Below, piece by piece: positions 4,158 to 30,085 of a stretch of DNA of 64,000 nucleotides; within the stretch, counting starts at the first letter, position 1; the number at the start of each line of letters is the position of its first letter. The DNA is from Portulaca oleracea. Lineage: Eukaryota; Streptophyta; Magnoliopsida; Caryophyllales; Portulacaceae. A program made the translations under genes and the position numbers. The stretch lies in the NCBI GenBank assembly GCA_029582165.1, contig CM055892.1:10922254-10986253 (forward strand), read 5' to 3'. Under the pieces are notes generated by a model. It saw only the letters and a program-made list of their open reading frames with translations. It was not told the DNA's origin and did no database searches.

Positions 4158-4160
4158 TAA

Positions 4161-6420: not shown

Positions 6421-6594
6421 AAAACTCGCGCGAGTTTTAATAAGTAAAGGTGGCCCAGAAGCAGGACAAGCCCAAGGCGCGCCCCGGCCCAGTGACTTCA
6501 AAACCCGCGTGGGTTTTCCCTTACTTGAAGCGCGTCGTTTTGCCGTCCACGTCAGCGATCCGTGTGTGGATTTTATAAAACCTGCGTGGGTTTT
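6421..6594. repeat. CpG-palindrome triplet upstream of the LTR promoter
   Basis: Three 18-bp palindromes of the AAAACCCGCGCGGGTTTT type at 6421-6438, 6500-6517 and 6577-6594 (spacings 79 and 77 bp). The first reads CTCGCGCGAG in its core, still a perfect palindrome after paired changes. They end about 150 bp before the TATA box. Confidence 0.9.
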
Positions 6595-6742
6595 CTTTTT
6601 AAACTCGGCGCCAAAATCTTGATCACCCTCCCTTGATATTAGCCCCATGTGTTTGACTCCTTCCCTTGACCTTTGTGAATGCATGGCATGATCATGGGGA
6701 TGTGTCCCCATGATTTTCCCTCCAAATCAGTACCACCTCACC

Positions 6743-6750
6743 TATAAATA
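6743..6750 (+). promoter_or_regulatory. TATA box of the 5' LTR of element B
   Basis: CCTATAAATACCCC. The same TATAAATACC core is found in the 3' LTR (22639-22646), in the LTR of element C (minus strand, 28692-28699) and at both antisense promoters. Confidence 0.75.
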
Positions 6751-7451
6751 CCCCCTCCATTTTCACCTTTATATCATCAACTATCCTCCACTACACTCAT
6801 ACTATACTTAAATCTTCTCTCAAATTTTCATACTTCCATATTCACTCTCTAAACCTCCTCTAATCTCTATTAACACATCCATATGATCACCCTAATACCA
6901 TTTTCCAAACCACTTCTATCTTTCCATCAAGGTCCAAGGTCAAGGCAAAGTCCAGGATTTCAACTGGCACATTCGGGCTCCTAAAATTAAAAGAGGTTCG
7001 CCTTATTGCTTTCTTTATTATTATTTAATCATGTAATTTATACATTAAATCCATTACTTGTGCACATTTTGTAAATAAAACCTTGTTGTATATTACATGA
7101 TGAGAATATAATTTCGTGAAATTAATTAAACTTCTCCCCGCTCTTTTTCATTTTAAAATCGATTTTACTAGAGTCTGTTTTCTAACAGGCGAATTCGAGA
7201 GTTCTTATAATTCTCGAATTCGTAACCTTACATCCAGACTTAGAATCGGGTTTCGTAGACCGGAGTCACTTTTTTTATTCTTTTATGGTTTGTCGATTTC
7301 CTTAAATTGGCTGGCGGCTCTTTATCACTTTTACATAAATCCTTTTCGTTATTTAAAATAAACGATAATTGCACAAAAATAATCATAATAATTTAGTACC
7401 ACTTTTTATTAATCTAAGGCCACCCAAGAGAAAACGGGCCAGAAGATTAAT

Positions 7452-7548
7452 AAAACCCGCACGGGTTTTATTAATTTTCATTCCCTTTCATCTGGGTCGA
7501 AGTTGCACAAGGCCCGACCCATGGCGCCATAAAACCCGCTCGGGTTTT
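7452..7548. repeat. CpG-palindrome pair in the LTR, downstream of the promoter
   Basis: Copies at 7452-7469 (core CCCGCACGGG) and 7531-7548 (CCCGCTCGGG), 79 bp apart. They lie about 700 bp downstream of the LTR TATA box, in transcribed LTR sequence. Confidence 0.88.
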
Positions 7549-7819
7549 AGGGTCCCATGATGGTCCCTTTGCTACTTCTTGGGCCCGAATGGAATAATGG
7601 GCCGGTACTAAATTTATTAGTATATTATTTTAGTGTAATTTCAGATATTTTAATAATATAAAAGAATATGTAAAATAAATAAAGTTTCATCATGCCGAAA
7701 TGAATTTCGAAAATAAAAATATCCTTATTTAAGGATTAAGCAACCTTTGTCGGCTGCCGATCACTTAAGTAGCGCATCACGGGGGAAGAGCGGTTACTTC
7801 TCTCCCCTGGGGTCCTACA

Positions 7820-7840
7820 GATTGGCGACTCCACTGGGGA
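7820..7840 (+). promoter_or_regulatory. primer binding site of element B
   Basis: Directly after the LTR end: GATTGGCGACTCCACTGGGG. A TGGCGA-CTCC-CTGGGG type site is usual for Tat/Ogre elements, where a tRNA-Arg primer has been reported. I could not test the match to a tRNA. Confidence 0.7.
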
Positions 7841-9427
7841 CTTAAACATAAAAAGAGGGTAAACCTTGAACAAATCGAATTAATTTGAAATTGTAAAAGG
7901 GAGACGTTGATTTATTTCATGATTTTATTATTCTTTAGACATCATTTGCATATCGGGCCACTAATCGCGTCTTTTGACACGTTAGCACAAAGGCGACGGT
8001 TTAGGTATACCTAGGTGATTCCCTCGAGAGCGGGCAGACCACTACCTGTGTGATGCATCCTACATCGCCAAGCATTTGGTCTCTCCTCTCCCCATGTTAC
8101 ACTCAAAGGGCTTCCTTGAAAACTTTGAGAAATACCTCACACTCCTTACCTAAGGGTATAGAGCACTTGGGTGAGAACGTGCGGTATGCCATGTAATCCA
8201 ACCATAGAAATCCATGAATATAGAGCCTTGGTTTAGGGTATCCCTTCATGTTGTATGCTATGTGTTATGTGTACCCCTTTCCCTTTTTTCTTCTTTTGTT
8301 TCAGAGTCGACGCTAGTTTGGAGGTTTTGTTCTAGTCCATATAAAATTCATTGGGTTGAGAAAATGATTATTTATTAATTAGAATAATTAACCCAAAAGG
8401 TATCGTGGTTAGCCCAAGTGGAAGGACCCATTTATGTTTGAAAGTTGATTATCTTAATTAATGAATAAAAATTGACTCACCTTTGATGATATTATATGGC
8501 CCTTTACGAAATTCTCTTAACGAAGGTCCATAAATTATTTAATGTCCAACAAAGTTAATGGATAGCATCTTAGACTGCATAATTGTCACTAGGCTTGAGT
8601 AAATTAATTTATTGATTTAATTAATAAATCCATCGCATTTATGGCCGACCCGTTGTTAGGCCCAACTATATTGGATTTGTCTATTAAGCCCGTAGATTAA
8701 TTATGACTCGCTTATTGTTGGCTTTATTCAGTCCTTTACAATATCCATTTTCCTCGAGTAAAAAAAATATAAAATAAAATATAAAATAAAAAGAAAGAAG
8801 GTTAAAAAAAATAGGTTGTTAGTTTTGTTGAACATTATTTTAGTCCGCATAATAGTCAATAAGGTTTGAGCTGTTTGAATTGTTGGGCTAAGTTACGGAT
8901 TCTCCTTAAAACGGTCGGCCTGAGGATGGGGCCCATCCAAATTGAGAAACACTGACTTATGCCTTGTAATTTATGACCTGCTCGCTATGTTTGGCTTTAT
9001 TCGGCCCTTTATAATGTCTTGTCCATAGGTCCATATAGAGTTAGGCCATCCACTCCCAAAAAGTGGGTGAGTCCTTTGTGTCAGCATATATGCGTCGAGT
9101 AAGTTAGGATCATATAGGTCCCTTAGGACATGCATGCATCGTGTAGTACGTGTCAGAGTATGCCATCGAGTATCCTAATTTTGAATTTCCATGCAGGCAT
9201 CATTGGTGATCGACTCCGAGCCCACATTCGAGATCCGCGAACTAGTCGTTTGATTCCAAACCCGCATTACGATCCATTTGCAACTAGTGATTGCATCATA
9301 TCTGGAGAACAATTCCAAGAGATCTCGGTCCAAAGCACCAAAGCCAACATTACGAAGCATTTGGATGAGCTCTATACCAAAATGTAAGGTCTTGTGTTTT
9401 GCTAATACTTTAGAGCAGGAGTAGAAG
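7841..9427 (+). other. 5' leader of element B, no convincing gene
   Basis: About 1.6 kb between the primer binding site and gag, without long open frames. It contains an imperfect direct duplication with an offset of about 272 bp (roughly 8480-8750 against 8750-9025) and an A-rich tract at 8758-8805. A short frame at 9130-9387 lies just before gag and may be a decayed 5' extension. TTTCCATGCAG at 9186-9196 would fit a splice acceptor but no partner donor is obvious. Confidence 0.6.
8480..9025 (+). repeat. imperfect 272-bp direct duplication in the leader
   Basis: GCATAATTGTCACTAGGCTTGAG (about 8578) pairs with GCATAATAGTCAATAAGGTTTGAG (about 8850). Likewise GACTCGCTTATTGTTGGCTTTATTCAG (about 8704) pairs with GACCTGCTCGCTATGTTTGGCTTTATTCGG (about 8977). 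The constant offset shows a diverged tandem copy. Confidence 0.6.
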
Positions 9428-10829
9428 ATGAGCAAAAGACTGAATGAACAACAACAAGTGATGGATGGCATGCTGCAGGCCATCACTAAGATCAATACCA
9501 AATTAGGGCTGAATGTTGAAGAAGATGACGAAGAAATGCATGGATACGAATCTGAACCTGAAATCATTAAGACATCTTCAGATTCTGGAAGAATGGGGAT
9601 ATCCAAGGCAAAAGTCAATACTCCAGAAGTGTCAAAACCTACAAGGGACCCCGCTGTTAAGGCCCTTGAGAAGAAGTGAGAGAGCCTCACTATAGCAATG
9701 AGCACTGTGCCAGCCTTTGCGGACAAGTACCTGGAGGTTCCATCGCCTGTTCAGCCAGCCCTAAAGATAGCTGACAAAGTTGAAGTGCCAAATATTAGAT
9801 TCAAACCCTCTGAGAGCCATATTCACCTTAGATGGCGAAGCTAAGGTATGGTATCATGCGCTGTCGCCCCAAACCAAAGCCGACTGGAGTGAGCTATTCA
9901 AAGCTTTCATCAACCATTACAGTCGCATCCAGAAGAAACAAGCTACGGTGGACGACCTAACCACCATGAAGTAGAGGGTTGATGAATCCTTTATGGATTA
10001 CTTTGAGAGATGGCATACCAAGTTGTCCCACATCAATGAGACAATCCCTTTCCGCCTACAGCTATCTACCTTTAAGCAAGGGCTCAAGAGTAGTCTGTCC
10101 AAGCACTTGCGGTACCATGTCGTTAAAGACTTTGATTACTTGAAGAACATTTGTGTCCAACTAGAGGAGATGCACAATGATAAGACCACTTCGCCTGGAT
10201 GGAAAGGGTCCAGCTCCAACAGGAGGGCCACTAGTGCGGCTAGCCACCCTCCTAAGATTATGGAGACTAACTCTATCCAGCGCAAAGGGCATTATGTACC
10301 AAAATATGAGACCTATACAGCGTTGGACGTTCCTTACTCTCAGGCTCTCGACCGTCTAGCCACGAAGGGTATCTTGATTTTGCCCTTACCGAAGGAGGAG
10401 CCAGAAATCAAAGGCAGAAACTGGGATGCCAACCAATTTTGCCGCTATCACCGTTGCCGAGGGCATGACAATGAGAAATCATGGGCTCTCAAGAACAAGA
10501 TAGAAGATATGATAAGGGCAGGGACGCTGCCAATGCCAAAAGCTACCAAGAAACCAAACAATCAAAGTAATCTTATGCCTGAGCATACGAATGCTGTTTT
10601 CTGTGGGGATTTCAGCTTCGACCCGTCCTCTTTGATTGTAGAAACAGGTCAACCTATCCCTGAAGTATTGGGTTCTGTGAAGGTCTGTTCATCCACGGTA
10701 TTTGGGACAGTGATGAGGATGACGAGCATGAGCACTCCGAGACGGAATGGATGGAGACGGAGGAACCAGGTAATGTGGCGTTTCTCACTCTGTCGGGCCG
10801 CCACAACCATAGGAGCACCACCACCCTAG
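9428..10829 (+). pseudogene. gag (element B), broken
   Basis: Gag of element B in several pieces. The N-terminal part starts at 9428 (MSKRLNEQQQ) with a likely short coiled coil and an acidic spacer, and hits a TGA at 9677-9679. The capsid-like core follows a frameshift near 9780, with WYHALSPQTKADWSELFKAF, the typical retrotransposon gag signature. A TAG interrupts it at 9972-9974, after which the same frame resumes at 9993 (MDYFERWHTKLSHI). The zinc-knuckle-like motif near 10433-10475 reads CRYHRCRGHDNEKSW. Its last cysteine is replaced by serine, so the knuckle is damaged compared with element A. A frameshift near 10670-10680 then separates gag from protease. Confidence 0.85.
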
Positions 10830-12567
10830 TGGTTGTTCCTAACCCTACACCAATAATCGACAATGACAATCAGGTCTCTCCTGAAGATCCTCTTCTTTCT
10901 CAACTCAAAAAGACCAGGGCGGAAGTCACCATATGGCAACTCATATGCACATCGCATGCCCATAGATTGAAGATGTTGGATGCCCTTACGGCACTCACAG
11001 TACCTCCTATGACGACTCCTGAATCCTTGGTTGCTCATGTAACCACTCAACAAGAGATGATTACTTTCGGGATCGAGGATCTGCCTCCAGGAGGAGCATC
11101 CCACAATAAAGCCCTGTACCTTACAGTGCAATGCTCCAACGAAACTATCCAATTAGTTCTAGTCGACAATGGTTCAACAGTAAATGTGTGCCCTTAGAGG
11201 ATGGCACAAAAGTTGGGAGTTTAACAACAACACTTGGCACAAAACGGTGTACAACTCGGGGCCTATGACAATTCACCTCAGAGATAAGTCAGATCTATAA
11301 TATTGTCCATTACTACTGGCAATGTTACTAGGAATATAGAGTTTGTGGTGCTAGACATTCCAGCCTCCTTCAATTTGCTACAAGGGAGGCCATGGCTTCA
11401 TGAGTGCAATGCTATAACATCCACCTTGCATCAAAAGGTGAAAATGCTGGTTCAAGGTCAAGTGATCACCGTCTCGGGAGAGTCTATCAATGTTGTTTTC
11501 ACCCCCAAGCAATCAACCCTTAAAGTGGAGCACAGTTCAATGGATGAAGAACTCCACAACTTTGAACTTGAAGCAACGATGAGCCAGGACGAAGCTCCTT
11601 TTGATTTCGATCCTTACTCAAATCCCAAGGTACACGCTATGCTCAAAAGACAAGGTCATTTCCCTGGGATGTCGCTGGGAAAGAATCCGAAAAATAAATT
11701 CCTCCTATATTCAAGACCTTTAAGCAGAAGGGAAGGTTTGGCTTAGGCTACAAGCCAACTAAGAAAGAGGTCAAGCTCGCAAAAATGGCTATAGTTAAGT
11801 AGAAAAGGATGGACAATCCTGCCACTTCATTCCAAATGAAGCCTTATCCACTTACTCTGAATGGGCAGTTTGTTAGGGAAGGTGATGACTTCCCCTATTA
11901 TGGGTTCCCTGAGCCATTTTATCTGAAGAACAAAGGAGTTCAAGTCGCTGGACTAGAAGACTTCAATGATTGCTCCATTAACATGGCTACTGTTTTTGTT
12001 CCCGCTCGGGACTAGCAGCCTCCATTAGAATGGACTCATCTTGATGGGAGCAACATTTTTGGCATGCTGCTTGGACAAGAAGCGGTCCAAGAGAATTTCG
12101 AAGCTGATGCTGTTATTGCTGCTTTATCCAACCCAAGCTGCGACCCGCATCTCATGATCTCTGAAGGAGAAGAAGTTAAGGCGGTCTCGTGGGTTGATGC
12201 TGAGGAGAATAATTTTGCTTTATTTGTAGGAGAGTCTGTTCCTAAGGACATAGGGTCAGGTCTTAAGGGTCTAGAGTCAACTAAGTCTGGTCTTGAGTCT
12301 GCTAGCGATGTATTCCTTTCTGCATTCAATAAGATGAACCTTCGCTACTCGATTCTTCTTTCCCTCTTCCCCAATCTGCGCCATAATAATCTGGAATTTA
12401 ATGAACCCTTAAAAGAATTTTCTAATGAACATGAGCATAAAATGGCGGTGTTAGAAGACACCATCGCCATAAATGTGGGCACAAAAGAACAACCTCGGGA
12501 GTTGAATTTTCTAATTGTCCCCGTACCCAAGAAAGATGGGAAAGTACTCATGTGTGTAGACTTCTGA
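10751..12567 (+). pseudogene. protease, linker and start of RT (element B), broken
   Basis: Continuation of the polyprotein. The retropepsin motif is VLVDNGSTVNVCP, followed immediately by a stop at 11195-11197. Homologous blocks continue at 11303-11746 (protease C-terminus, FNLLQGRPWLHE), 11809-12015 and 12064-12567 after further frameshifts and stops. At about 12508 the sequence jumps from EQPREL straight to the VPVPKKDGK motif of RT. Roughly 275 bp present in element A (about 2357-2631) are missing, removing the fingers N-terminus of RT. Confidence 0.85.
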
Positions 12568-14103
12568 TACCTCAATAAAGCCAGTCCCAAGGATAGTTTC
12601 CCATTACCTCACATCGATGTATTAGTGGATAACACTTGCGGGCATGAGCTCCTATCTTTTATGGATGGATATGCTGGTTACAATCAAATCAAAATGGCAG
12701 AAGAAGACATGTAGAAAACTTCATTCACTACACCATGGGGAACATACTGTTATGTGGTTATGCCTTTCGGTGTGAAAAACACCCTACTTCATGACATGAT
12801 GTACATAGAGGTAGAGGTTTATGTGGACGACATGATTGTTATGTCCAAAACGAGGGAGGAGCACATTCCTTACCTCGGCAAATTCTTTCTGCGACTTCGC
12901 AAATACAAGATTCGGCTTAATCCAGCAAAGTGCACCTTCGGTGTTACCTCTGGGAAGCTGCTAGGTTATGTGGGTAGCCAACGGGGCGTTGAAGTTGACC
13001 CTTCAAAGATAAAGGTTATCCAACAGTTGCAACCGCCCAGGACAGAAAAAGAGATAAGAGGCTTCCTAGGACGAATTCAATACATCAGCAGGTTCATCTC
13101 AAAGCTCACCATGACTTGTGAACCTTTATTCAAGAAACTAAAGAAAGGAAGCAAAATAGAATGGGATGATCAATGTCAAGTGGCCTTTGACAAAATCAAG
13201 GAATATTTACAACATCCTCCAGTCCTTATGCCGCCAGTACCAGATGAGCCTCTACTCCTTTACCTTACCGTGACTAGCTCTACAATGGGGGCTATGCTAG
13301 CTCAAAAGGTCAAAGGTCAAGAGAGCGCCATCTACTACTTGAGCAAGAAGTTCCTGGACTATGAAAGTCGATACGCAGACATAGAGAAAATGGCTCTCGC
13401 ATTAGTATGGGCCACCAGGAAGTTAAGACATTACATGCTTTCACATACAGTATATGTCATAGTTGAGAATAATCCCATCAAGTTCATCATGGAGCAACCT
13501 ACCATCAACAACTGCATCGCTCGATGGGTGGTCATGCTTTCAGAATTCAATCTCCAGTACCTGCCTCAGAAATCCATCAAAGGACGGGTTGTTTCAGATT
13601 TCCTGGCTGCTTCACCATCACAGGAACCTCCGAGCACTCACTTGGAGTTCCTAGACGAAGATGTATTCTTCACTGATGAAGTAACATGGGAAATGTATTT
13701 TGACGGAGCTTCTAACTAAATGGGATGTGGAGTAGGAGTCCTGTTAATATCTCCAGAAGGGGTACATGTCCCTGTATCTGTAATGTTGGATTTTGATGCG
13801 ACTAACAACGCTGCCGAATATAAAGCATGCATCAAGGGTTTACCAGTTGCGTTGACCTTGGGTATACACCATATAAAGGTTTTTGGAGATTCTAGCCTCA
13901 TCATTAATCAGGCTAAAAATACATGGAAAGTTCGGAATGAAAGTCTTATGGCATACCAACAGAAGCTCTTGGGACTTGCTGACCAATTTGAACAAATTAG
14001 CTTCCAATACCTTTCTAGGGACCACAATGAATTGGCCGATGCTCTAGCCAAGTTGTCTTCAATGATATCTGAACCAGCATACGTCTGCAATATGAAGACA
14101 TAG
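12568..14103 (+). pseudogene. RT palm, RNase H and second RNase H (element B), broken
   Basis: The RT frame has a TGA at 12565-12567 and a TAG at 12712-12714, and a small deletion around 12778 after TPWGTYCYVVMPFGV. From 12754 a 321-residue frame carries YVDDMIVMS (catalytic box), the connection region and the first RNase H (YADIEKMALALVW). A stop at 13717-13719 interrupts the second RNase H between MYFDGASN and GCGVGVLL. The rest, with NNAAEYKA and FGDSSLIINQ, is open at 13720-14103. The order and identity match element A closely. Confidence 0.87.
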
Positions 14104-14223
14104 GAAGAGGAAACCAAGGAATGGTTTCATGACATATACAATTTTCTTCGGAAAGGAGAATATCCAACTGAGTAGGATGCTCGAGGAGAACGAGCGATCA
14201 GGTCTCTAGTAGCACAATACTGC

Positions 14224-15366
14224 TTGATCCAAGATCGCCTTTACAAGAAATCCACTACGGGCATTAATTTATTATACATCGATACCAACAGCGCAAAGGA
14301 GGTCATGGCTACTGTACATGGAGGAGAGTTTGGGCCTCACATGAATGGGCACATGCTAGTGAAGAAGATTCAAAGGGCTGGTTATTATTGGTCTACTATA
14401 GAGGCAGATTGCTTAGGGTTCGTTCGAAAGTGTCACAAATACCAAGTATATGCCAACCTACAACATCAATCCCCATCATATCTAACTACTTTGACATCTC
14501 CATGGCCGTTCTCGGTATGGGGTATCGACATCATTGGCAAGATACACCCAACCGGAACAGGAGGGCATGAATACATCTTGGTCGCCATCGACTACTTCAC
14601 TAAATAGGTAGAAGCAGCCTCTTACGCCAAACTCACATCCAAGCAAGTGGCCAAATTCATTCTCCAAAACATCATATGTCGATATGGAGTGCATCATGAG
14701 ATCATTAGTGACAATGGAAGCCATTTTCGGAAGGAAGTAGAAACTTTGCTCGCCACTTACAAAATCTAGCATCACCGGTCTTCGCCATACCGACCTCAAA
14801 CTAATGGAGCTGTAGAAGTGGCCAATAAAACAATGGCTGGAAACATCAAGAAAATGGTTGTCACTTACAAAGATTGGCCTGACAAGTTGGCATTTGCCCT
14901 GTGGGGATACCGAACCTCTATACGAACTGCTACAGGTACAACGCCATATTCTTCGGTATATGGGATGGAAGCAGTCCTACCAATTGAAGTAGCAATCCCT
15001 TCGTTAAGGATAGTGGCAGAAAGTCAGTTGCCAGAAGCAGAATGGGCTAGGGCAAGGTTCGAGGAGTTAATGTTGATGGACGAAAGGCGATTGAAGGCGT
15101 TGCATAATGTACAAGTGTACCAAAGTAGGATCACTCGTGCTTTTAATAAGAAGGTGAAAGGTCGTTCACTTCAAGTAGGTAATTTGATGCTTAAGGAGAT
15201 GAGGGCACCTATACAAGACCCAAGGGGAAAATTTGCACCTAATTGGAAGGGTCCTTATATGATTAAGGACATTTTGCCAGGAGGAGCAGCCCGACTTACT
15301 ACTATAGATGGAGAAGATATAATTCAGCCCACGAATTTGGATCAGCTCAAGCGATATTATGCTTAA
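14224..15366 (+). pseudogene. integrase (element B), broken
   Basis: The zinc-finger part (14224-14607) keeps VHGGEFGPHMNGH, but its second Cys pair reads KCHKYQ instead of CHKCQ, so one zinc ligand is lost. The core begins VWGIDIIGK and stops at 14605-14607 (TAG for Trp after FTK). DDE residues beyond this stop can be read up to a further TAG at 14767. From 14818 the frame is open to 15366 and ends QLKRYYA, the family C-terminus, which fixes the true end of pol. Antisense gene 1 lies convergently beyond it. Confidence 0.87.
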
Positions 15367-15693
15367 TATATCCAAGCAACTGAGAAACCAATTTTCAGAC
15401 ACTTGGAGTATATTCAATAAATGCTCATATATATAATAAAAATAAAGTTTGCAAGAATACAATAATTGTGAACAATATTTCTTGTTTATTAGTTGATAAT
15501 GCAAGTACACTGCTTGTAAATAAGAAAATTCAAAAGTTATAATCAAGTAAAAGATTATTCTGGCAAAGTAGTTTTAGTTCCTTCATTCCCGTCCATCTTC
15601 TAATCTTGCTTCACTTTCTCTACTTCGCCAGTGGTCTCATGGTCAATCTCCATGTCCTTAGACCCATTATGGTCTTTCTTTTTGTCTTTGGGC

Positions 15694-17053
15694 TTATAGA
15701 CTCGCCTGCTTGGTTTCCACTCTCGGACCAAGTCTGTCTTTTACCGAATCTTTTAGACCAAGGCGGTCCTTTACTAATGTGCAGGGACCCAACGCAGATG
15801 CTTGTCTTCTTCTCGCCTCTCCAGCACGGCGAGATTCAATAGCTGCAATCAGCCATCCGTGATAGCCGGAATCAGCAATTTGGGATACATGCGCCTTTGG
15901 AAGAGCTTTAAGAGTTGGCCTTCTTTCCCAGTATTTTAGCCATGACTCTATCACCGAGTTTCGAAGCTTCATTTGTTCAGGAACTTCACACAACAACTCG
16001 TGGATACTTTGTTTGCGACCCATCTACCGCCTCACTCGCGCCGGAAAATAAAAGGTCATGTGCGTAAAACCGGCAAAGCACACATAGGCGTTACGTGAAT
16101 CATGAGTCACATACTCGGAAATGTGCCATCGTTCGATCCACCATGTGATGTCACGAGGTTCCTTTAGAAATGCGATCCATTCAGTTACCGAGTAGAGATC
16201 GGTGTACTTCCTCTTCCTCTGACAATAATTTGCTAAAGCCGAAGAAGTTCAAGGTTCTTCGATGAGGCCCAAGTATTCCATTAACCAGATCTGTCCATAA
16301 AGTTAGCCATGGCAAGATTGCATGTCAATTATCCCAAACTAACGAAAAAAGAAAAAAAAATGTGTAAAACCCGCGCGGGTTTTACAGGTAGTAGCGGCAG
16401 AAACAAAATAGAAGAGAGAAAGAAGAGTGAAATACCTGAAGTAACAGGGGGCTTCCCCGAAATTCATGCTCTGGATTCGGATCGTCCAAGCCGATCATAG
16501 TTTCCGCTAGCATTAGAGGTATGGGATTGTAGCCCAAGGACATGTCTTCAACGATTCGAATCAAGTTTGCCGGTCCGGTTCTCTTGCCACCGTGGTAGAA
16601 GCAAAACTCATCGAGAAGACATAATACGAGCGCTCGCACCCGTATCACTGAGCCATATTCCAAGGTATCGGGAGATTGAAAGTATTCAACTATGCTTTGA
16701 AAGTGTACCTTTTCGCCAAATATTGCACTTCCGATGACCCGAGAGGGAAGACATAAGAGCTCATTGTATTGCTTGGGGATGTCAGTTGGTGTCGGAGGTG
16801 ACGTCGGTCGAGCAAAATGATTCGTCCCTAGGATTGAGGACCACTCCTTCGGAAGCGGACATAACTCTTTCCAAGTAAACCCAAAAACATGTATTTTGAC
16901 ATCCCAAAAAGTCTCCGCCGCTCGGAAAAATTCATGATTGACTCTCACTTGTCGAAGGCTCAACAAGCTCGTCAATTTGTATCTTCCGAGCTATTTCTTC
17001 TCTTCCTTGGACAAGGTGCTCATCCAAGTAGCAAGTTTCTTCTCAAAAGCCAT
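15694..17053 (-). pseudogene. antisense gene 1 (element B), DUF7745-like, two exons
   Basis: Spliced gene on the strand opposite to gag-pol. Exon 1 is 17053-16436 (618 nt, starts MAFEKKLATW), the intron is 16435-16291 (donor CAG|GTATTT, acceptor GGACAG), and exon 2 is 16290-15694. Conserved stretches are PLPEEWSSILG, GEKVHFQ, NPIPLMLAETM and GSPLLLQ, then exon 2 with MGRKQSIHELL and IESWLKYWERRPTL. This pattern resembles the DUF7745 family of plant element-borne proteins, whose function is unknown; I judge that from memory of the family. Element A carries the same gene with identical exon-1 length. Here a TAG at 16993-16991 replaces Glu and another stop lies early in exon 2, so it is dead. 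It has its own TATA box (17149-17156). Confidence 0.75.
16366..16383. repeat. single CpG palindrome in intron 1 of antisense gene 1 (B)
   Basis: A perfect copy of AAAACCCGCGCGGGTTTT within the 145-nt intron. The homologous intron of element A has the same site at 23971-23988. Confidence 0.9.
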
Positions 17054-17148
17054 TGGAATGGGAGGTTTTTTTTTTGTGTTTTTGGAGAATATGTGATGAA
17101 GACTTTAAAGTGAAGATGATGAGTAATGATCATATGCACAAAATGAGG

Positions 17149-17156
17149 TATTTATA
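17149..17156 (-). promoter_or_regulatory. promoter of antisense gene 1 (B), TATA box
   Basis: TATAAATACC on the minus strand, about 100 bp before the ATG at 17053. It is the same core as the LTR promoter. A CpG-palindrome pair begins about 116 bp further upstream. Confidence 0.72.
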
Positions 17157-17748: not shown

Positions 17749-20700
17749 TCACCACAAGGAGCCCGAATCGCCGCTATCTTCAACCAGATTATTACCAGCG
17801 TGTGAAGTCCCAGCGTTGGAGGTGCCAGCCGTGCCAAAATAGGTGTCCTAGGGATAGTAGTCGAGACCAGGAGTCGTCTGCACAGGAGGCGATGGCTCAG
17901 ACAAGGGGACTCCAGAAGGATGTACGCTCGATGGTGACGATATGGAATGCTCTTGCGAAGCAGCTAGCCATGAATGGTCAGGAACATGCCACTCAACAGA
18001 AGGGGTACGCCATAAAGGACCAGTTCCATAACCGGGGCTGGCCAACCAAAAGAAGTAAATCCTCCCAGCCAAGAGTGTTGAGGTGCAGATCACTCTTGCA
18101 CACCCGTAGGCCATGAAGGACGAATCCCAGGAGTCGAAACAGGCCATCCAGTAGAATGAGAGCCAGAGCCGAAAGGGGAAGCATTGTAGGGTGCAGGACG
18201 TCAAGTAGCATCATTCGCTAGGGCACGACTGCCAGGATACCCTACGGATGCACCTGAGTCATGCTCCCTCACCACTATCACCCGACCATGGTGAGCATAA
18301 CGCACTGAAGCTGGAGTGCAACGAGAATGAGAGGGCCGGTAGGTGGCGCTTGACTCTGAAGCATCTTCCACCCAATAGGAATGGGGCTGATTATCACCAC
18401 CATACCCAACACTGTGATACGACCCCCCTAACCAAGTGGCTCCTCCAAGGACATCTGAGCCATGTCCTCTTCCATATTCGGAGGACAATGATCTCTGCTA
18501 CCGGATCTGCTACGATGAGACCCAGTTGAGTGGTGACCCTCGATCATAATGCCTTTGCCGTGACCCTCTGGCACAACTGCTAGGGGAGGACGAGAAGATC
18601 CACCAACTTCTTCCCGAGACCAGCCTCGAGAAGAATATTCCCCTACCGAAGAACAACGTGGGGGCTCGGTGCGAGGGGCTCGTGCTGTAGAACGTCGAGG
18701 TGGCTCCCGAGGAACAGACTCCACATCGGCCTCCATGTCAGCCCTTCCAACGGTATTGTCGCGATATCTACCTGAGCCGGTGAATGCCCGGTCAATATGC
18801 TTCTTCATAGTGCTCCACTCCTTAGTCAATTGGCGGAGGAAAGCTCATGTTGGCTGAAAGATAATGAGACTAAGATTATACATTCATAAGTGACATGTGA
18901 CAAAAGGAAGCAACATGAAACGAAGAATTACCGGTTTCCGATCAAATTCTCGGAGTGTAGAACACTCACTACTGTTCTCTACATCTAAGAAGCCGCCAAT
19001 ATTTCTCCTCACTGGTGGACGCTCCCCCTCAGCGGCCTTAGCATAAGGCCCTAGCGGTAAACTTTATGGCCAGAGATCAGCCAAAACATGACAGAGATAA
19101 GGGAAGAAGATACATACCACCCGGGGAGCCAAACGGCTCAGATAGCGCTGGAATTCCTCATTGAACTGCTCCTGTGGAACGTCATGCACAAAGTTGTCAA
19201 AGTCATGACCACGAATTAGATCTCTCAGAACACCCGGGTCTACACGCCATGGCTCGAACATATGCTCCGGAGGATCCTGGGGAATAAGACCGGGATATCC
19301 CCCCAGGATTTGCCTCGAAGCTCTCTCTCCCAAGTACCATACGAAGCCCGAAGGTCCCTCCATCAGAATGTGAAGGCGAGTATCGTGTTCCACCAGTTGC
19401 AAAAGGGGTGGGCAATCCATCCAAGTTGAATTCAATCCAAGGACGCCAATTCACTTGATCCTATGAAGGAAAGAAAGTTATTTCAAGAATGGAGGAAAAT
19501 AAAAGAAAGATGTCAGGCATAAAGAAATACCGGTGTAAGGTCGTCCAGCACACGACGAATATGGTCGAGACTGCCTGGCTGGAATTTCTTCCTACGAAGG
19601 GCCTCAGTAGTCCAGCATGCAGCAGCGAGGGCCGTCTTATCTTTCTTTGAGCGAATACCCAAAGGTAGAATGTACTCGTATGCCCACGACTACACGAACA
19701 TAAAGTCAAAGAAAGAGCAAAAGAGTAGCAGTACTACAAAGAGAAGAGTCTCGGGTACATATCTCGAGCACCTTCCACAGAGCAGGGCCATACTGGTAGC
19801 GAGTATGAGTCTCATGGAGATAAACTGGATCATCGTCCTGTGAAAGTCTGACACCACGGTTATGCTAGAGAATGAAGTTCGCATAAGTCGCTTTACCCCA
19901 GTTCAGGTTCCGAACATTAATCAGGTCCAGAAGATTCCGAAACCATAACAAGGTGATGTACGTAAGAGAGGTTCGAAAGGCCTTGCCCTTGGCCTAAACG
20001 CGCTGATACTGGACCCAATCTATCCAAGACCATCGATGGAATCTCGGCGTCGAAGACTACGTCGCGCCCACCCCAAGGAAGGCCAATGATCATAACGAAG
20101 TCTGTGGGAGTAATAGTCATCTTACCCACAGGCAAGTGAAAGAAATTGGTAGTGTCCCGAAACCTTTCAGCTGTAGCACCGTCAATGACGCGGAATGTTC
20201 GACCTCTCCAGGCAACCAAACATTTCAAAAACGACATAAGACCCGCCGCGGTCAAAGTGTTATTGATAAAGTCTCAAGGAATTGACTCAGCTACTTTAAG
20301 GGGATCTTTTAGGGCGCCGGGAGTCTTCAAATTATCCTCCTAAAGGCAAACAGAAGGGCTAATTAAAGTTGGGGGCTCATCTAATACGTTGGACCTAGGC
20401 ATAGTCTTTTGGGCCCTAGCTGGACCCATCACCAACACTGGGCTCACAACCATGGCCTACAAGATAAACAAATTGAAAAACAAAAAAAAAACGGCCTGAA
20501 TATCCCGACCCAACGGAATTAAAACCCGCACGGGTTTTATTTCTTTTAAGGGTCGCACCTCCGGCCCAATGAGTTTTTAGGCAGCCCATAGAGCGAGAAA
20601 ACCCACGCGGGTTTTTATGTTGCTAGCAGGCCGCCTCCTTGTCGACTAGGCCGAGCATGCATGGGTCCAGTGAAATAAAACCCGCGGGGGTTTTCTCTAA

Positions 20701-21070
20701 CTTATGGGTCGGGTTTGGTCATTTCAGGTCCATTTTACAAATTGGGTTCTCGGTCGTAATGCATAAAAAAGGCCATCATGGAGTCGTATATACGCATCAA
20801 TTTAAAGCATGCTTAAAATAATGAAAAACGACAAGACATGAAAAATAAATTCGTGCTTGCTCATTTTTTTACAGTAAACTAAGCATAAAAAGAAGTTTCA
20901 GAAATTACCTTGCCATGAGATCGGTAGAACCAAGCGTGGTTCCAAGATTGAATGGTGAGATCCGAAGGGTCAACATTCACACCCGGGATGAAGTTGCGCC
21001 GTGAAGACATTTCATGAGGCCATGCCGCCGCATGAGGAAGAGGAGGATTTCTATGTCCTTGGGGATGCAT
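17749..21070 (-). pseudogene. antisense gene 2 (element B), plant mobile domain protein, about six exons
   Basis: Spliced minus-strand gene. Exons by GT-AG and comparison with A and D: 21070-20909 (54 codons, starts MHPQGHRNPP), 20339-about 19760, 19689-19531, 19460-19118, 19061-18932, 18853-17749. Exon 2 carries the plant mobile domain (aminotransferase-like PMD) signature FHLPVGKMTITPTDFVMIIGLPWGG. Exon 4 holds MFEPWRVDPGVL and RYLSRLAPRVV. The last exon encodes a long Ser/Arg/Pro/Gly-rich tail ending SGDSGSLW. PMD proteins include host MAIN/MAIL proteins and many transposon proteins; the molecular role here is unknown. Lesions: TGA early in exon 2, about 100 bp deleted near 19960, a frameshift near 19405, a mutated exon-2 donor, and stops in the tail. 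Confidence 0.78.
20521..20694. repeat. CpG-palindrome triplet in intron 1 of antisense gene 2 (B)
   Basis: Copies at 20521-20538, 20598-20615 and 20677-20694 (spacings 77 and 79 bp), all inside the 569-nt first intron (20908-20340). Cores are CCCGCACGGG, CCCACGCGGG and CCCGCGGGGG. Confidence 0.88.
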
Positions 21071-21181
21071 TTTCTAAAAGAACTCAAACAATCTTCAAAG
21101 AGCAAATTTTTTCTAGAGAGAAGGAGCTAGAGAGATGTGGAGGAGTTGAAGATGTGAATGAATGAAATGAATGAGGCATGG

Positions 21182-21189
21182 TATTTATA
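21182..21189 (-). promoter_or_regulatory. promoter of antisense gene 2 (B), TATA box
   Basis: TATAAATACC on the minus strand, about 110 bp before the ATG at 21070, followed by a pyrimidine-rich leader. Element D has TATAAATACT at the same relative place (62160-62167). Confidence 0.72.
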
Positions 21190-21398
21190 GAAATATTGAG
21201 TGAATATGAGCCGCTCGTTTCTAGGACCCGCCTCGAGATGCCAAATGCGTTTTATTGGCCGAAAATCCAAAGGTCATCACCTTGCCACCCAAATAGGAGA
21301 CATGGCTGCGTGGCACATCCTCATCCGCACAAGAACCGGGCCCCACATTGATTCCCTTCCCGAGGAAAAGAAAAAAAAAGAAGAGAAGAAAAGGAGCT

Positions 21399-21493
21399 AA
21401 AGTGCGCGCGGGTTTTGTGAGCTCTACAGGCCCAATTCTCGGCCCGACGCCTCTCAACGACCCAACAAAGGTTATAAAACCCGCGTGGGTTTT
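21399..21493. repeat. CpG-palindrome pair upstream of antisense gene 2 (B)
   Basis: A degenerate copy at 21399-21416 and a better one at 21476-21493 (CCCGCGTGGG), 77 bp apart, about 210 bp upstream of the TATA box. Element C keeps the same pair at 29990-30085 in inverse orientation. Confidence 0.85.
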
Positions 21494-21689
21494 ATTCTAC
21501 CTAGGGCCTGATTCCGCGGGCCGAGATCCCCTCAGCCCATTCAAAGCAAGCCTTGCGACAGTGTGGCCCAGAATTTCCAAAGTTCAGGTAAAAGTTTAAA
21601 CCCTCCTCACATGTCGATAAAACTAATACTTAATTTTCTTGTGATTTTCAGGTTATCGCTAAAAAAGGACCATATATCATCCGGTTGCC

Positions 21690-22075
21690 ACATAAAAGAG
21701 CACCATCATCAATAGCAGTCATCCAATGGATGCCACTAAAAGGTCTCTGACGATATCATCAGTAGCAGTCGTCCAACGGATGCCACTTAAAGGTCTCCGA
21801 CGATATCATTAGCAGCAGTCGTCCAACGGATGCCACTTAAAGGTCTCCGACGATATCATCAGCAACAGTCCTCCAGCAGATGCCACTGAAAGGTCTCCAA
21901 ACGACATCATCAACAGCAGTCGTCCTACGGATGCCACTTAAAGGTCTCCGACGATATCAGCAGCAGAATTGTCCAACGGATGCCACTTAAAGGTCTCCAA
22001 CGACATGCTCAGCATCAGTCGTCCAACGGTTGCCACCTAAAGGTTACCGGCGACATCATCATCAACAATATCATT
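21690..22075 (+). repeat. 50-bp tandem array upstream of the 3' LTR (B)
   Basis: Seven to eight units of about 50 bp, each with GTCGTCCAACGGATGCCACTT followed by AAAGGTCTCCGACGATATCA. Tandem arrays just before the 3' LTR are known for Tat/Ogre elements. The same array is at 29340-29765 in element C. Confidence 0.9.
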
Positions 22076-22157
22076 TGGTCGCCGCCAGCATCAAGACAGA
22101 CATCAAGCAGATAGCATTTCAAGCTACTTTGACCTTCGTCTTATTTGGACTCGATCA

Positions 22158-22171
22158 AAGTGGGGGCTCTC
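22158..22171 (+). promoter_or_regulatory. polypurine tract of element B
   Basis: AAGTGGGGGCTCTC directly before the 3' LTR start TGTAAACACC. It would prime plus-strand DNA. The same stretch borders the LTRs of C (29161-29176) and D (60936-60950) on the minus strand. Confidence 0.8.
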
Positions 22172-22315
22172 TGTAAACACCGGCATTCGCACCGATATAA
22201 TCCCAACTCATCAAAAGTTCAATAAATCATTTGGGCTGGATGCCAAGATGGGTCATTGGGCCCTTGTAAAAAGCAAAGCAAGCATAACGGGACAAGGCGG
22301 CCCAGTACCTGGAAC

Positions 22316-22489
22316 AAAACCCGCATGGGTTTTAATAAGCAAAGGTGGCCCAGAAGCAAGACAAGCCCAAGGCGCGCCCCGACCTTGTGACTTCAAAACC
22401 CGCGCGGGTTTTCCCATACCTGAAGCGCGTCATTTTGCCGTCCACTTCAGCGATCCGTGTGTGGATATTATAAAACTCGCATGGGTTTT
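22316..22489. repeat. CpG-palindrome triplet in the 3' LTR (B)
   Basis: Copies at 22316-22333 (CCCGCATGGG), 22395-22412 (perfect) and 22472-22489 (CTCGCATGGG); spacings 79 and 77 bp. Same positions in the LTR as 6421-6594. Confidence 0.9.
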
Positions 22490-23347
22490 CTTTTTAAACT
22501 CGGCACCAAAATCTTGATCACCCTCCCTTGATATTAGCCCCATGTGTTTGACTCCTTCCCTTGACCTTTGTCATTGCATGGCATGATCATGGGGATGTGA
22601 CCCCCATGATTTCCCCTCCAAATCACTACCACCTCACCTATAAATACCCCCTCCATTTTCACCTTCATATCATCAACTATCCTCCACTACACTCATACTA
22701 TACTTAAATCTTCTCTCGAAATTTCATACTTCCATATTCACTCTCTAAACCTCCTCTAATCTCTTTTAACACATCCATATTATCACCCTAATACCATTTT
22801 CCAAACCACTTTTATCTTTCCATCAAGCTCCAAGGTCAAGGCAAAGTCAAGGATTTCAACCAGCACATTCGGGCTCCTAAAATTAAAAGAGGTTCGCCTT
22901 ATTGCTTTCTTTATCATTATTTAATCATGTAATTTATACATTAAATTCATTGGTTGTGCACATTTTGTAAATAAAACCTTGTTTTATATTGCATGATGGG
23001 AATATAATTTCGTGAAATTAATTAAACTTCTCCCCGCTCTTTTTCATTTTAATATCGATTTTAGTAGAATTTGTTTTCTAACAGGCGAATTCGAGAGTTC
23101 TTATAATTCTCGAATTCGTAACCTTACCCCCTTACTTAAAATCGGGTTTCGTAGACCGGAGTCACTTTTTTTTATTCTTTTATGGTTTGTCGATTTCCTT
23201 AAATCGACTGGCGACTCTTTATCACTTTTACAAATTCTTTTGGTTATCAAAAACAAATGATAATTGCACAAAAATAATCATAAATAATTTAGTACCGCTT
23301 TTTATGAATCTAAGGTCACCCAAGAGCAAACGGGCCAGAAGATTAAT

Positions 23348-23444
23348 AAAACCCACACGGGTTTTATTAATTTTCATCCCCTTTCCTCTGGGTCGAAGTT
23401 GCACAGGGCCTGGCCCATGGCGCCATAAAACCCGTGCGGGTTTT
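23348..23444. repeat. CpG-palindrome pair in the 3' LTR (B), downstream cluster
   Basis: Copies at 23348-23365 (CCCACACGGG) and 23427-23444 (CCCGTGCGGG), 79 bp apart. Homologous to 7452-7548. Confidence 0.88.
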
Positions 23445-23717
23445 AGGGTCCCATTGGCGGTCCCTTTGCTACTTCTTGGGCCCGAATGGAATAATGGGCC
23501 GGTACTTAATTTATTAGTAAATTATTTTAGTGTAATTTTGGATGTTTTAATAATATAAAAGAATTTGTAAAATAAATAAAGTTTCATCACCCTGAAAATG
23601 AATTTCGAAAATAAAAATACCCTTATTTAAGGATTAAGCAACCTTAGTTGGCTCCCGATCACATAAGTAGCGCATCACGGGGGAAGAGCGATTGCTTCTC
23701 TCCCCCAGGGTGCTACA

Positions 23718-24661
23718 CACGTACTCGGAAAGTGCCACCATTCGATCCACCATGCAATGTCACGAGTTTCTTTTAGGAATGCAATCCATTCTGTTATTGA
23801 ATGGAGATTGGTGTACTTCCTCTTCCTTTGGTAATAGTTCGCCAATGCCAAAGAAGTTCGAGGGTCCTTGATGAGACCCAAATGCTCCATCAGCCAGATC
23901 TGTCCATAAAGTTAGCAAGGGTTAAAATTGAATGCCAATTATCCGAAACTAAAGAAAAAAAAATATGTGTAAAACCCGCACGAGTTTTACAGACAGTAGA
24001 GAAAAAACAAATGATGAAGAAAGGAGAGGAGGAGAAGAAGTACCTGAAGAAGTAGGGGGCTCCCACGAAGCTCATGCTCTGGATTCGGGTCGTCCAAGCC
24101 CATCATGGTCTCCGCTAGCATCAATGGCACCGGGTTGTAACCCCGAGATATATCTCCAACAATTTGAATCAAGTTCGCCAGCCCGGTTCTCTTGCCACCG
24201 TGATAGAAGCAAAACTCACCAAGAAAACATAATACGAGCGCTCGCACTCGTGTCACGAGACCATATTCCAAAGTATCAGGAGATTGGAAATATTCAACTA
24301 CGGTTTGGAAATGTACCTTTTCACCGAGTATTGCACTTCCGATGACCCGAGATGGAAGGCATAGCAGCTCTTTGTACAGTTTGGTGAAATCAGGCGATGT
24401 TGGAGGTGACGTCGGTCGAGCAAAGTGATTCGTCCCTAGGATTGAGGACCACTCCTCCGGAAGCGGACATAACTCCTTTAAAATGAATCGAAAAACATGC
24501 ATTTTCGGGTCCCAAAAAGTCTCCGCCGCTCGGAGAAAGTCATGGTTGACCCTCACTTGTCGAAGGCTCAACAAGCTCGTCAGCTTGTATCGCTCGAGCT
24601 CTTTCTTCTCTTCCTTGGATAAGGTGCTCATCCATGTAGCAAGTTTCTTTTCAAAAGCCAT
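23718..24661 (-). pseudogene. antisense gene 1, 5' part (element A), DUF7745-like
   Basis: Exon 1 runs 24661-24044 (618 nt, 206 codons, MAFEKKLATW to SPLLLQ) and is fully open. The intron is 24043-23900 (donor CAG|GTACTT, acceptor GGACAG). Exon 2 starts at 23899 (IWLMEHLGLI) and is broken at 23718 by element B; its remainder is 6276-5747. This is the better-preserved copy: PLPEEWSSILGTNHF, LCLPSRVIGSAI, LCFLGEFCFYHGGKRTG, NPVPLMLAETM and DDPNPEHELRG. The pattern resembles DUF7745, a domain of unknown function in plant element-borne proteins. The equal exon-1 length in A and B and the phase-0 splice support a real coding gene in the ancestor. Own TATA box at 24754-24761. Confidence 0.8.
23971..23988. 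repeat. single CpG palindrome in intron 1 of antisense gene 1 (A)
   Basis: AAAACCCGCACGAGTTTT inside the 144-nt intron, at the site homologous to 16366-16383 of element B. Confidence 0.88.
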
Positions 24662-24884: not shown

Positions 24885-24978
24885 AAAACCCGCGTGGGTT
24901 TTGATTCCCCCAGATCCACGCGCGCGCCTAGCCAAGCCCAGCCCAAGGCCATCTGAAGAGAAAACCCGCGGGGGTTTT
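24885..24978. repeat. CpG-palindrome pair upstream of antisense gene 1 (A)
   Basis: Copies at 24885-24902 (CCCGCGTGGG) and 24961-24978 (CCCGCGGGGG), 76 bp apart. Homologous to 17272-17367 of element B. Confidence 0.88.
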
Positions 24979-27583: not shown

Positions 27584-27854
27584 TGTAGGACCCCGGGGGA
27601 GAGAAGCGACCGCTCTTCCCCCGTGGTGCGCTACTTAAGTGATCGGGAGCCGACTGAGGTTGCTTAATCCTTAAATAAGGATATTTTTATTTTCAAAATT
27701 CATTTTCGGGGTGATGAAACTTTATTTATTTTACAAATTCTTTATATTATTAAAATATCCGTAATTACACTAAAATAATTTACTAATAAATTTAGCACCA
27801 TCCCATTATTCCATTCGGGCCTAAGAAGTAACAAAGGGACCGCTATGGGACCCT

Positions 27855-27951
27855 AAAACCCGCGCGGGTTTTATGGCGCCATGGGCCGAGCCCTGTGCAA
27901 CTTCGACCCAGAGGAAAGGGGTTGAAAATTAATAAAACCCGTGTGGGTTTT
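27855..27951. repeat. CpG-palindrome pair in LTR of C (downstream cluster)
   Basis: Copies at 27855-27872 (perfect) and 27934-27951 (CCCGTGTGGG), 79 bp apart. Confidence 0.88.
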
Positions 27952-28847
27952 ATTAATCTCCTAGCCCGTTTTCTCTTGGGTGGCCTTAGATTAATAAAAA
28001 GTGGTACTAAATTAGTTATAATTATTTTTGTGCAATTATCGTTTATTGTAAATAACCAAAATAATTTGTAAAAGTGATAAAGAGTCGCCAGCCGATTTAA
28101 GGAAATCGAAAAACCATAAAAGAATAAACAAGTGACTCTGGTCTACGAAACCCGATTCTAAGTCCGGGGGTTAAGGTTTCGAATTCGAGAATTATAAAAA
28201 CTCTCGAATTCGCCTATTAGAAAGTAGACTCTACTAAAATCGATATTAAAATGAAAAAGAGTGGGGAGAAGTTTAATTAATTTCACGAAATTATATTCTC
28301 ATCATGCAATATAAAACAAGGTTTTCTTTACAAAATGTGCACAAGTAATGGATTTAATTTATAAATTACATGATTAAATAAGAACAAAGAAAGCAAAAAG
28401 GCGAACCTCTTCTGATTTAGGAGCCCGAATGTGCCTGTTGAAATCCTTAACTTTGCCTCGACCTTGGACCTTGATGGAAAGATGGAAGTGGTTTGGAAAA
28501 TGGTATTTTTGGTGATAATATGGATGTGTCAAAAGAGGTTAGAAGTGGTTTAGGAAGTATGATATTTTGTGAGAAGATTTAAGTATAGTATGAGTGTAGT
28601 GGAGGATAGATGATGATAGTTGGTGAGAATTTGAGTATAATGCTGGTGGTTTATGAGAGTTGTTGATGAAGAATGAATGGAATGGAGGGGGTATTTATAA
28701 GTGAATGAGGTGAGGTTTGGAGGGAAAATCATGGGGACACATCCCCATGGTCATGCCATGCAATCACAAAGGTCAAGGGAAGGAGTCAAACACGTGGGGC
28801 TAATATCAAGGGAGGGTGATCAAGATTTTGGCGCCAAGTTTACAAAG

Positions 28848-29021
28848 AAAACCCACGCAAGTTTTATAATATCCACACACGGATCGCTGACTTGGACGAC
28901 AAAACGACGCGCTTCAAGTAAGGGAAAACCCGCGCGGGTTTTGAAGTCACTGGGTCAGGACTTGCCTTGGGCTTGTCCTGCTTCTTGGCCGCCTTTGCTT
29001 ATTAAAAACCGTGCGGGTTTT
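28848..29021. repeat. CpG-palindrome triplet in LTR of C (promoter-upstream cluster)
   Basis: Copies at 28848-28865, 28925-28942 (perfect) and 29004-29021, spacings 77 and 79 bp. Confidence 0.88.
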
Positions 29022-29339
29022 ATTCCAGGTACTGGGCCGCCTTGTCCCGTTTGCTTTGCTTATTACATGAGCCCAATGACCCATCTTGGCATCCGGCCCA
29101 AATGATTTATTGAACTTTTGATGAGTCGGGATTATATAAGTGCGAATCCCAGTGTCTACAGAGAGCCCTCACTTTGATCGAGTCCGAATAGGACGAAGGT
29201 CAAAGTAGCTTGAGATGCTATCTGCTTGATGTCTGTCTTGATGCTTGCGGTGCTCTTTTATACGACGACCAAATGATGTTGTTGATGATGATGCCGTCGG
29301 TAACCTTTAGGTGGCAAACGTTGGACAACTGACGCTGAG

Positions 29340-29765
29340 GATGCCGTTGGAGACCTGATGATATCGTCGGAGACCTTTAAGTGGCATCCGTCGGATGACT
29401 GCTACTGATATCGTCAGAGACCTTTAAGTGGCATCAGTTAGACGACTGCTGCTGCTGATATCGTCGGAGACCTTTAAGTGGCATCCGTTGGACGACTGCT
29501 GCTGATGATGTCATCGGAGACCTTTAAGTGGCATCCGTTGGACGACTGCTACTGTAACATCGTCGGAGACCTTTAAGTGGTATCCGTTGGACGACTGTTG
29601 CTGATGATATCGTTGGAGACCTTTAAGTGGCATCCGTTGGACAACTGCTGCTGATGACATCGTTGGAGACCTTTCAGTGGCATCCGTTGGATGACTGCTG
29701 CTGATGACATCATCGGAGACCTTTAAGTGGCATCCGTTGGACGACTGCTGCTGATGATGGTGCTC
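29340..29765 (-). repeat. 50-bp tandem array of element C
   Basis: GGAGACCTTTAAGTGGCATC recurs at about 29370, 29417, 29467, 29517, 29566, 29616, 29666 and 29716, with spacings of 47-50 bp. The spacer carries CGTTGGACGACTGCTGCTGAT. Homologous to 21690-22075. Confidence 0.9.
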
Positions 29766-29989
29766 TTTTATGTGACAACCGGATGATATATGGTCCCTTT
29801 TTAGCGGTAACCTGAAAATCACAAGAAAATTAAGTATTGGTTTTGTCGACATGTGAGGAGGGTTCAAACTTTTACATGAACTTTGGAAACCCTAGGCCGC
29901 AGTCTTTGGGCCATCGGTTTTGTGTCGCACGACTTGCTTTGAATGGGCTGAGGGGATCTTGGCCCGCAAAATCAGACCATAGTTAGAAT

Positions 29990-30085
29990 AAAACCCACGC
30001 GGGTTTTATAACCCTTACTGGGCCGTTGAGAGGCGCTGGGCCGTGAAACTAGGCCTTTAGAGATCACAAAACCCACGCGGGTTTT
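29990..30085. repeat. CpG-palindrome pair upstream of the lost antisense gene 2 (C)
   Basis: Copies at 29990-30007 and 30068-30085 (both CCCACGCGGG), 78 bp apart. They are the counterpart of 21399-21493. Confidence 0.88.

What the first reader, a model, noticed from the sequence alone, without database searches (positions are those of the whole stretch)
6421..30085. 28 copies of an 18-bp CpG palindrome in clusters with fixed 76-79 bp spacing
AAAACCCGCGCGGGTTTT and variants occur 28 times in 13 clusters of one to three. Every neighbouring pair inside a cluster is 76, 77, 78 or 79 bp apart (start to start), yet the spacers between them are unrelated in sequence between clusters. Five copies are perfect. 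Most variants are C-to-T or G-to-A at one of the three CpGs, as expected from deamination of methylated sites; at least one (6421) has paired changes that keep the palindrome. A conserved short site with fixed spacing in unrelated DNA suggests selection on the site and its phasing, for example binding of a dimeric protein array, a methylation-dependent switch, or nucleosome-scale spacing.
Basis: seen in the sequence. Interest (0 to 1): 0.88.

Follow-up and report, generated by a model that had tools for sequence, protein, structure and literature searches.

The report
Family-specific regulatory palindromes in Ogre-type retrotransposons
A plant jumping gene carries arrays of a short mirror-image DNA site beside each of its promoters, probably landing pads for its own DNA-binding protein, much like a known system that lets another kind of jumping gene undo its own silencing.

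The parts
6277..23717 (+). Element 2: LTR retrotransposon of 17.4 kb (LTRs 6277-7819 and 22172-23717), nested in element 1; TSD CACGT at 6272-6276 and 23718-23722
   Evidence: self-comparison; borders read
6421..6594 (.). Cluster A (3 palindromes: 6421, 6500, 6577), 5' LTR of element 2, upstream of TATA 6742-6754
7452..7548 (.). Cluster B (7452, 7531), 3' part of the 5' LTR
16366..16383 (.). Cluster C (single perfect palindrome), in the predicted intron 1 of the antisense DUF7745 gene, about 52 bp past the donor
17272..17367 (.). Cluster D (17272, 17350), upstream of minus-strand TATA 17145-17157 of the antisense DUF7745 gene
20521..20694 (.). Cluster E (20521, 20598, 20677), in predicted intron 1 (20340-20908) of the antisense PMD gene
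21399..21493 (.). Cluster F (21399, 21476), upstream of minus-strand TATA 21177-21190 of the antisense PMD gene
22316..22489 (.). Cluster A in the 3' LTR of element 2 (22316, 22395, 22472); TATA 22638-22650
23348..23444 (.). Cluster B in the 3' LTR of element 2 (23348, 23427)
23971..23988 (.). Cluster C copy of element 1
24885..24978 (.). Cluster D copy of element 1 (24885, 24961); minus TATA 24750-24762
27855..27951 (.). Cluster B copy in the inverted LTR of element 3 (27855, 27934)
28848..29021 (.). Cluster A copy in the inverted LTR of element 3 (28848, 28925, 29004); minus TATA 28688-28700
29990..30085 (.). Cluster F copy of element 3 (29990, 30068); no TATA found in the 400 bp examined
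1..5526 (+). gag-pol part of element 1: RT, RNase H, second RNase H (RVT_3), integrase zinc-binding and core domains
16436..17053 (-). First exon of the antisense DUF7745/PMD-like gene of element 2 (frame broken by a stop); the homologous exon of element 1 is open (window 23990-24709, minus)
20909..21070 (-). Predicted first exon of the antisense PMD gene of element 2; the frame at 19917-20273 (minus) gives a sub-threshold PF10536 match
27584..30292 (-). Element 3: inverted LTR (27584 to about 29160) and adjoining 3' internal region, inserted into element 1

Best explanation
The palindrome array is the cis half of a self-regulation system of one Ogre-type LTR retrotransposon family. Three transcription units (LTR, antisense PMD gene, antisense DUF7745 gene) each carry an array upstream of the TATA box (A, F, D) and another downstream of it (B in the LTR's 3' part; E and C in predicted first introns). 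I infer that a PMD-superfamily protein encoded by the antisense genes binds them, probably as a dimer on AAAACCC-RYRY-GGGTTTT, together with host factors at neighbouring GGCCCA sites, and keeps these units active or unmethylated in a family-specific way, as VANC proteins do for VANDAL transposons. Shown: anatomy, abundance, family restriction in the sample, conservation, and family-specific motifs beside diverged proteins. Supported through one relative only: fold likeness to VANC21. Inferred: which protein binds, dimeric binding, and the anti-silencing effect.
Confidence: 0.55

Rival explanations
1. The arrays are ordinary promoter and enhancer elements for host transcription factors (for example a growth-linked factor with TCP proteins at GGCCCA sites); no element protein is involved.
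For: Arrays lie near TATA boxes; GGCCCA/TGGGCC is 21-fold enriched beside sites (188 against 9.0 expected from the rest of the loci, not matched for GC), with a peak about 20-27 bp from the site centre. That GGCCCA is a TCP or site II element is recalled, from no call.
Against: All 74 sampled stretches lie in this one retrotransposon family, and related families have their own motif versions, which a shared host factor would not predict.
Confidence: 0.25
2. A neutral tandem repeat of about 78 bp, typical of the 3' regions of Tat/Ogre elements, whose spacers have decayed; the palindrome has no function.
For: Recent unit duplication in cluster E of L007, L009 and L011 (3 of 39 within-cluster pairs). 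A homologous 77-82 bp tandem array stands beside another Ogre-like polypurine tract at 60.9-61.6 kb. The Retand survey reports tandem arrays in about half of its elements (PMC11963269).
Against: Sites outlive spacers: 0 of 345 sampled between-type spacer pairs align, yet arms are conserved, and in related families no motif copy lies in an exon. Clusters occur in LTRs and introns, not in one 3' array.
Confidence: 0.1
3. The palindromes act as structures in RNA or DNA (hairpins for packaging, dimerisation or small-RNA production) or as nucleosome-positioning marks.
For: Perfect inverted repeats with a CpG core and A and T borders; 76-79 bp is about half a nucleosomal length (inference).
Against: A, D and F lie upstream of the TATA box of their unit, so are probably not in that transcript; the two halves do not covary; related families use mostly non-palindromic direct copies.
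Confidence: 0.07

Closest known systems
VANC anti-silencing system of VANDAL Mu-like transposons (Hosaka 2017 PMC5735166, passages seen; Sasaki 2023 PMC10398659, start of abstract and introduction read)
   Same: Short motif in multiple copies in upstream regions and introns of a TE; related families with different motifs; TE-encoded protein; a relative of the antisense protein has a fold match to VANC21 bound to DNA
   Different: Host element is an LTR retrotransposon; motif is an 18-bp CpG palindrome with 76-79 bp spacing, not YAGTATTAY; no DUF1985 match; genes are antisense; anti-silencing untested
Ogre and other Tat-clade Ty3 retrotransposons with extra ORFs (Neumann 2019 PMC6317226, one passage; Vicient 2025 PMC11963269, two of five parts and passages)
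   Same: Long internal region, second RNase H, antisense PMD genes (PMD in 57% of Ogre elements per Neumann 2019), tandem repeats near the 3' LTR
   Different: No palindrome arrays at promoters and introns are described in what I read; here two antisense genes, both apparently of one superfamily
Host PMD proteins MAIN and MAIL1 (Nicolau 2020 PMC7156037, passages seen)
   Same: PMD proteins tied to TE silencing; genes that need them share a promoter motif ('DOWN') of unknown binder
   Different: Host genes; motif letters not seen by me; not element-encoded

Membership tests
VANC anti-silencing system | Short motif clusters in non-coding regions (upstream and introns) of the element | tested here: met
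   (introns predicted from splice signals)
VANC anti-silencing system | Different motifs in related element families | tested here: met
VANC anti-silencing system | Encoded by a VANDAL Mu-like transposon | tested here: not met
   element has LTRs, TSD, RT, RNase H, integrase
VANC anti-silencing system | VANC protein with DUF1985 at sequence level | tested here: not met
   no DUF1985 row for 6 proteins scanned in Pfam up to E 10
VANC anti-silencing system | VANC21-like protein fold | tested here: inconclusive
VANC anti-silencing system | Protein binds motif and causes loss of DNA methylation | not testable with these tools
   needs EMSA, DAP-seq, bisulfite data
Ogre/Tat-clade Ty3 retrotransposon | LTRs with 5-bp target duplication, PBS and PPT | tested here: met
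Ogre/Tat-clade Ty3 retrotransposon | RT, RNase H, second RNase H (RVT_3), integrase in this order | tested here: met
   (element 1)
Ogre/Tat-clade Ty3 retrotransposon | Antisense PMD gene between pol and 3' LTR | tested here: inconclusive
   PF10536 E 7.9e-8 (32.3 bits) and 7.3e-4 (19.2 bits), below the 34.9-bit cut-off
Ogre/Tat-clade Ty3 retrotransposon | RT phylogeny places it in Ogre | not tested
   no reference RT set used
PMD superfamily (second antisense gene) | Match to PF10536 or PF24924 | tested here: inconclusive
   window exon: PF24924 25.6 bits, cut-off 26. Relatives: P0026 passes both, P0004 passes PF10536 only, P0010 and P0025 pass PF24924 only

The most novel reading that the evidence does not exclude
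PMD-superfamily proteins of Ogre retrotransposons share the VANC fold and function: each family encodes its own DNA-binding anti-silencing factor whose CpG-containing target arrays sit at its promoters and first introns, and protein and motif diverge together. PMD genes in Mu-like transposons and host PMD genes (MAIN, MAIL1) would then belong to the same functional superfamily.
Probability: 0.35. Interest if true: 0.92.

Novelty: new variant of a known kind. Interest (0 to 1): 0.78.

Why it matters
The role of antisense genes in such retrotransposons is called unknown in PMC7264820 (passages seen) and PMC11963269 (two of five parts and passages), and the function of the PMD is called unknown in PMC9289625 (passages). 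This window offers a concrete, testable target: a family-specific DNA site placed at the promoters of the element, and a candidate binder whose relative folds like a known anti-silencing protein. If true, sequence-specific anti-silencing extends from Mu-like DNA transposons to LTR retrotransposons, a very large part of plant genomes, and PMD proteins gain a mechanism.

Tried and rejected
Rejected or weakened: the clusters as one decayed satellite; palindrome covariation; plain deamination as sole cause of variants. An early reading that P0001 showed the site conserved in another species was dropped: it is 91-94% identical to loci L079 and L083 of this genome. Of 95 database relatives, 33 have a readable tail of 22 or more residues after the splice donor, and only P0001 shows a translated motif.

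Led nowhere: protein search with an LTR frame (18 candidates, none at E 0.001); P0001 in genome contigs (39 stretches, none confirmed); paper search for the palindrome letters (two papers on other subjects hold the 12-letter core, none the longer forms); PDB sequence searches (0 matches); a DUF1985 search of the genome (not completed). 9lnj did not appear for the window exon's model. Host species not identified. One of them (PMC12844716) already asks whether extra ORFs of LTR elements act on their epigenetic state, citing VANC as the model.

Full report
CHECK OF THE OBSERVATION. The 28 sites, their coordinates, the five perfect copies and the 13 clusters are as described. All 15 within-cluster gaps in the window are 76-79 bp. 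The genome (1.13 Gb, 63 contigs; a plant, inferred from its PMD and Ogre-type elements; species not identified) holds 16,825 matches at up to two mismatches, against 8 for the reversed pattern. In 20 ten-kb loci and 54 short stretches, 107 of 148 gaps under 150 bp are 76-79 bp.

WHAT IT LIES IN. Self-comparison of the window and border reading show nested retrotransposons. Element 2 runs from 6277 to 23717, with LTRs of about 1.54 kb, a CACGT target duplication, a primer-binding site at 7823-7841 and a polypurine tract near 22157-22171. It interrupts element 1. Element 3 is inverted and begins at 27584. Element 1 carries reverse transcriptase, RNase H, a second RNase H (RVT_3) and integrase. 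Between pol and the 3' LTR there are two antisense genes. One gives PF10536 (PMD) matches below the cut-off (32.3 and 19.2 bits, cut-off 34.9), the other a DUF7745 match of 25.6 bits (cut-off 26). Full-length relatives of the second match both Pfam families over overlapping stretches, P0026 above both cut-offs, so both genes look like members of one superfamily. PMD is reported in 57% of Ogre elements (PMC6317226, one passage seen).

SIX CLUSTERS, NOT THIRTEEN. With the palindromes masked, 74 of 75 clusters from the window and the 20 ten-kb loci fall into six homology groups, A-F; the one left over is a four-mismatch stray at 35804. Spacers do not align between groups (0 of 345 sampled pairs with z above 4, highest 3.9). 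Within clusters 3 of 39 pairs do, all in cluster E of L007, L009 and L011, a recent unit duplication. So in element 2 there are seven gaps in five non-homologous clusters, all 77-79 bp. Further sampling: 34 C1 stretches and 20 stretches on other contigs all belong to A-F. The C1 stretches were drawn from the first 100 listed rows, all perfect sites (54 of the 55 places I had marked), the others from the rows of one extended pattern (28 matches on each strand, 20 places taken), so most of the 16,825 sites were not looked at.

POSITION. TATA boxes of near-identical form lie downstream of A in 8 of 10 copies given (148-176 bp), of D in 7 of 8 (115-125 bp, minus strand) and of F in 7 of 9 (207-288 bp, minus strand). 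E lies in the predicted first intron of the PMD gene. C lies about 52 bp inside the predicted first intron of the DUF7745 gene. B lies in the 3' part of the LTR, past a polyadenylation-like signal. So each of the three units has one array upstream of its TATA box and one downstream. Splice sites and promoters are read from sequence; no transcripts were available.

CONSTRAINT. With chosen anchor clusters left out (31 of 74), mean pairwise identity is 0.924 at the site's A/T positions and 0.864 at its outer G/C positions, against 0.736 and 0.701 in flanks; none of 20,000 shuffles reached either difference. The centre (0.731) is no better than flanks. Clusters entered that table by holding a site at up to four mismatches, which favours the site columns, so detection by flanks alone was also done: 52 of 52 regions with flank matches on both sides keep at least one site at up to four mismatches. 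Among 247 sites, C9 and G10 changes almost never coincide (1 seen, 11.4 expected), as single CpG deamination predicts. The outer CpGs change on the inner base (G8 38, C11 43) and hardly on the outer base (C7 10, G12 7). Flanking CpGs show the opposite context trend (CCG 85 of 751, GCG 34 of 455). The constrained unit is therefore AAAACCC-RYRY-GGGTTTT. Many sites share ancestry, so these counts are not independent events.

PARTNER HEXAMER. GGCCCA/TGGGCC occurs 188 times within 80 bp of sites against 9.0 expected from the rest of the same loci, a background not matched for GC, with a peak 20-27 bp from the site centre. In element 2 alone, one copy per cluster, 7 of 15 GGCCC/GGGCC cores lie at 20-27 bp (binomial p 0.007, bin chosen). 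L079, L083 and L082 show the hexamer between their motif copies too (5, 3 and 3; 0.8 expected by chance per locus); the four family 3 loci hold only 1-2 each, mostly away from the motif.

RELATED FAMILIES. A DUF7745 search of the genome gave 59 matches, a lower bound. I fetched eight of them. One (L086) is the window's family. Seven carry a protein 43-51% identical to the window's, by segment. In these seven the palindrome is absent (best 4 mismatches), and the promoter and first intron hold other motifs: AAATCCGCGTGGA (L079, L083), AAATCCGCGCCA (L082) and AAATCCGCGAGGA or AAATCCGCGAGAA (L080, L081, L084, L085). None of these motifs occurs in about 226 kb of family 1 loci, flanking DNA included; among the related families the motifs overlap slightly (one AGGA copy in L079/L083, one TGGA copy in L082). 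Of 82 core motifs, 0 lie in 4,161 bp of exon and 82 in 7,346 bp outside. L082 has a perfect 20-bp palindrome at the C position. Its 18-bp core, which differs from the window's by two symmetrical pairs of changes, has 4,158 genome matches against 5 in the control; where those lie was not checked. Spacing in these families is looser, 55 of 66 gaps under 150 bp being 26-49 or 64-86 bp.

COMPARISON. Hosaka 2017 (passages) describes VANC21 binding YAGTATTAY in introns and upstream regions of VANDAL21, tandem-repeat turnover of the motif, and different motifs for VANC6. The present system works alike in layout and family specificity, but is not a VANC member: it lies in an LTR retrotransposon and the protein shows no DUF1985 match. 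What I read on Retand, Ogre and other extra ORFs reports antisense ORFs and tandem repeats and does not describe such arrays. My searches for a paper on the VANC21 structure failed, so I cannot say whether a PMD-VANC link is already in print.

VERDICT. The site is real and conserved, and in all sampled places it is part of one retrotransposon family. The most likely role is a binding array for the element's own PMD-type protein, controlling its three promoters, possibly by anti-silencing (0.55). The main rival is a host-factor enhancer (0.25).

Noticed in passing
window 37906-44089: A Mu-like transposon with AT-rich inverted ends, a MULE transposase fragment just under the cut-off, a frame that looks OTU-like by eye (recalled, no call) and a strong minus-strand PMD frame (PF10536, E 2.3e-38, 41931-42671).
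   Followed up: partly
window 61007-61565: Tandem array of 77-82 bp units beside an Ogre-like polypurine tract on the minus strand (60936-60950): possibly another Tat-type remnant with nearly the same unit length as the palindrome spacing.
   Followed up: partly
window 52220-53051 and 60043-60874: Two direct repeats 92% identical, possibly LTRs of another element.
   Followed up: no
window 31431-32508 and 33404-34469: Two 1.08-kb direct repeats 93% identical, close together.
   Followed up: no
G000 C18:10371332-10408255: Nine exact GAAAACCCGCGCGGGTTTTA sites in 37 kb, four gaps of 2.53-2.56 kb: perhaps a local tandem array; the two sites fetched (L071, L072) are cluster B.
   Followed up: partly
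L080, L081, L084, L085: A 12-bp perfect palindrome TTTCAATTGAAA recurs at the same intron place just before the family 3 motif.
   Followed up: no
many loci: A second gap class of 97-101 bp, about 21 bp more than the main one.
   Followed up: no
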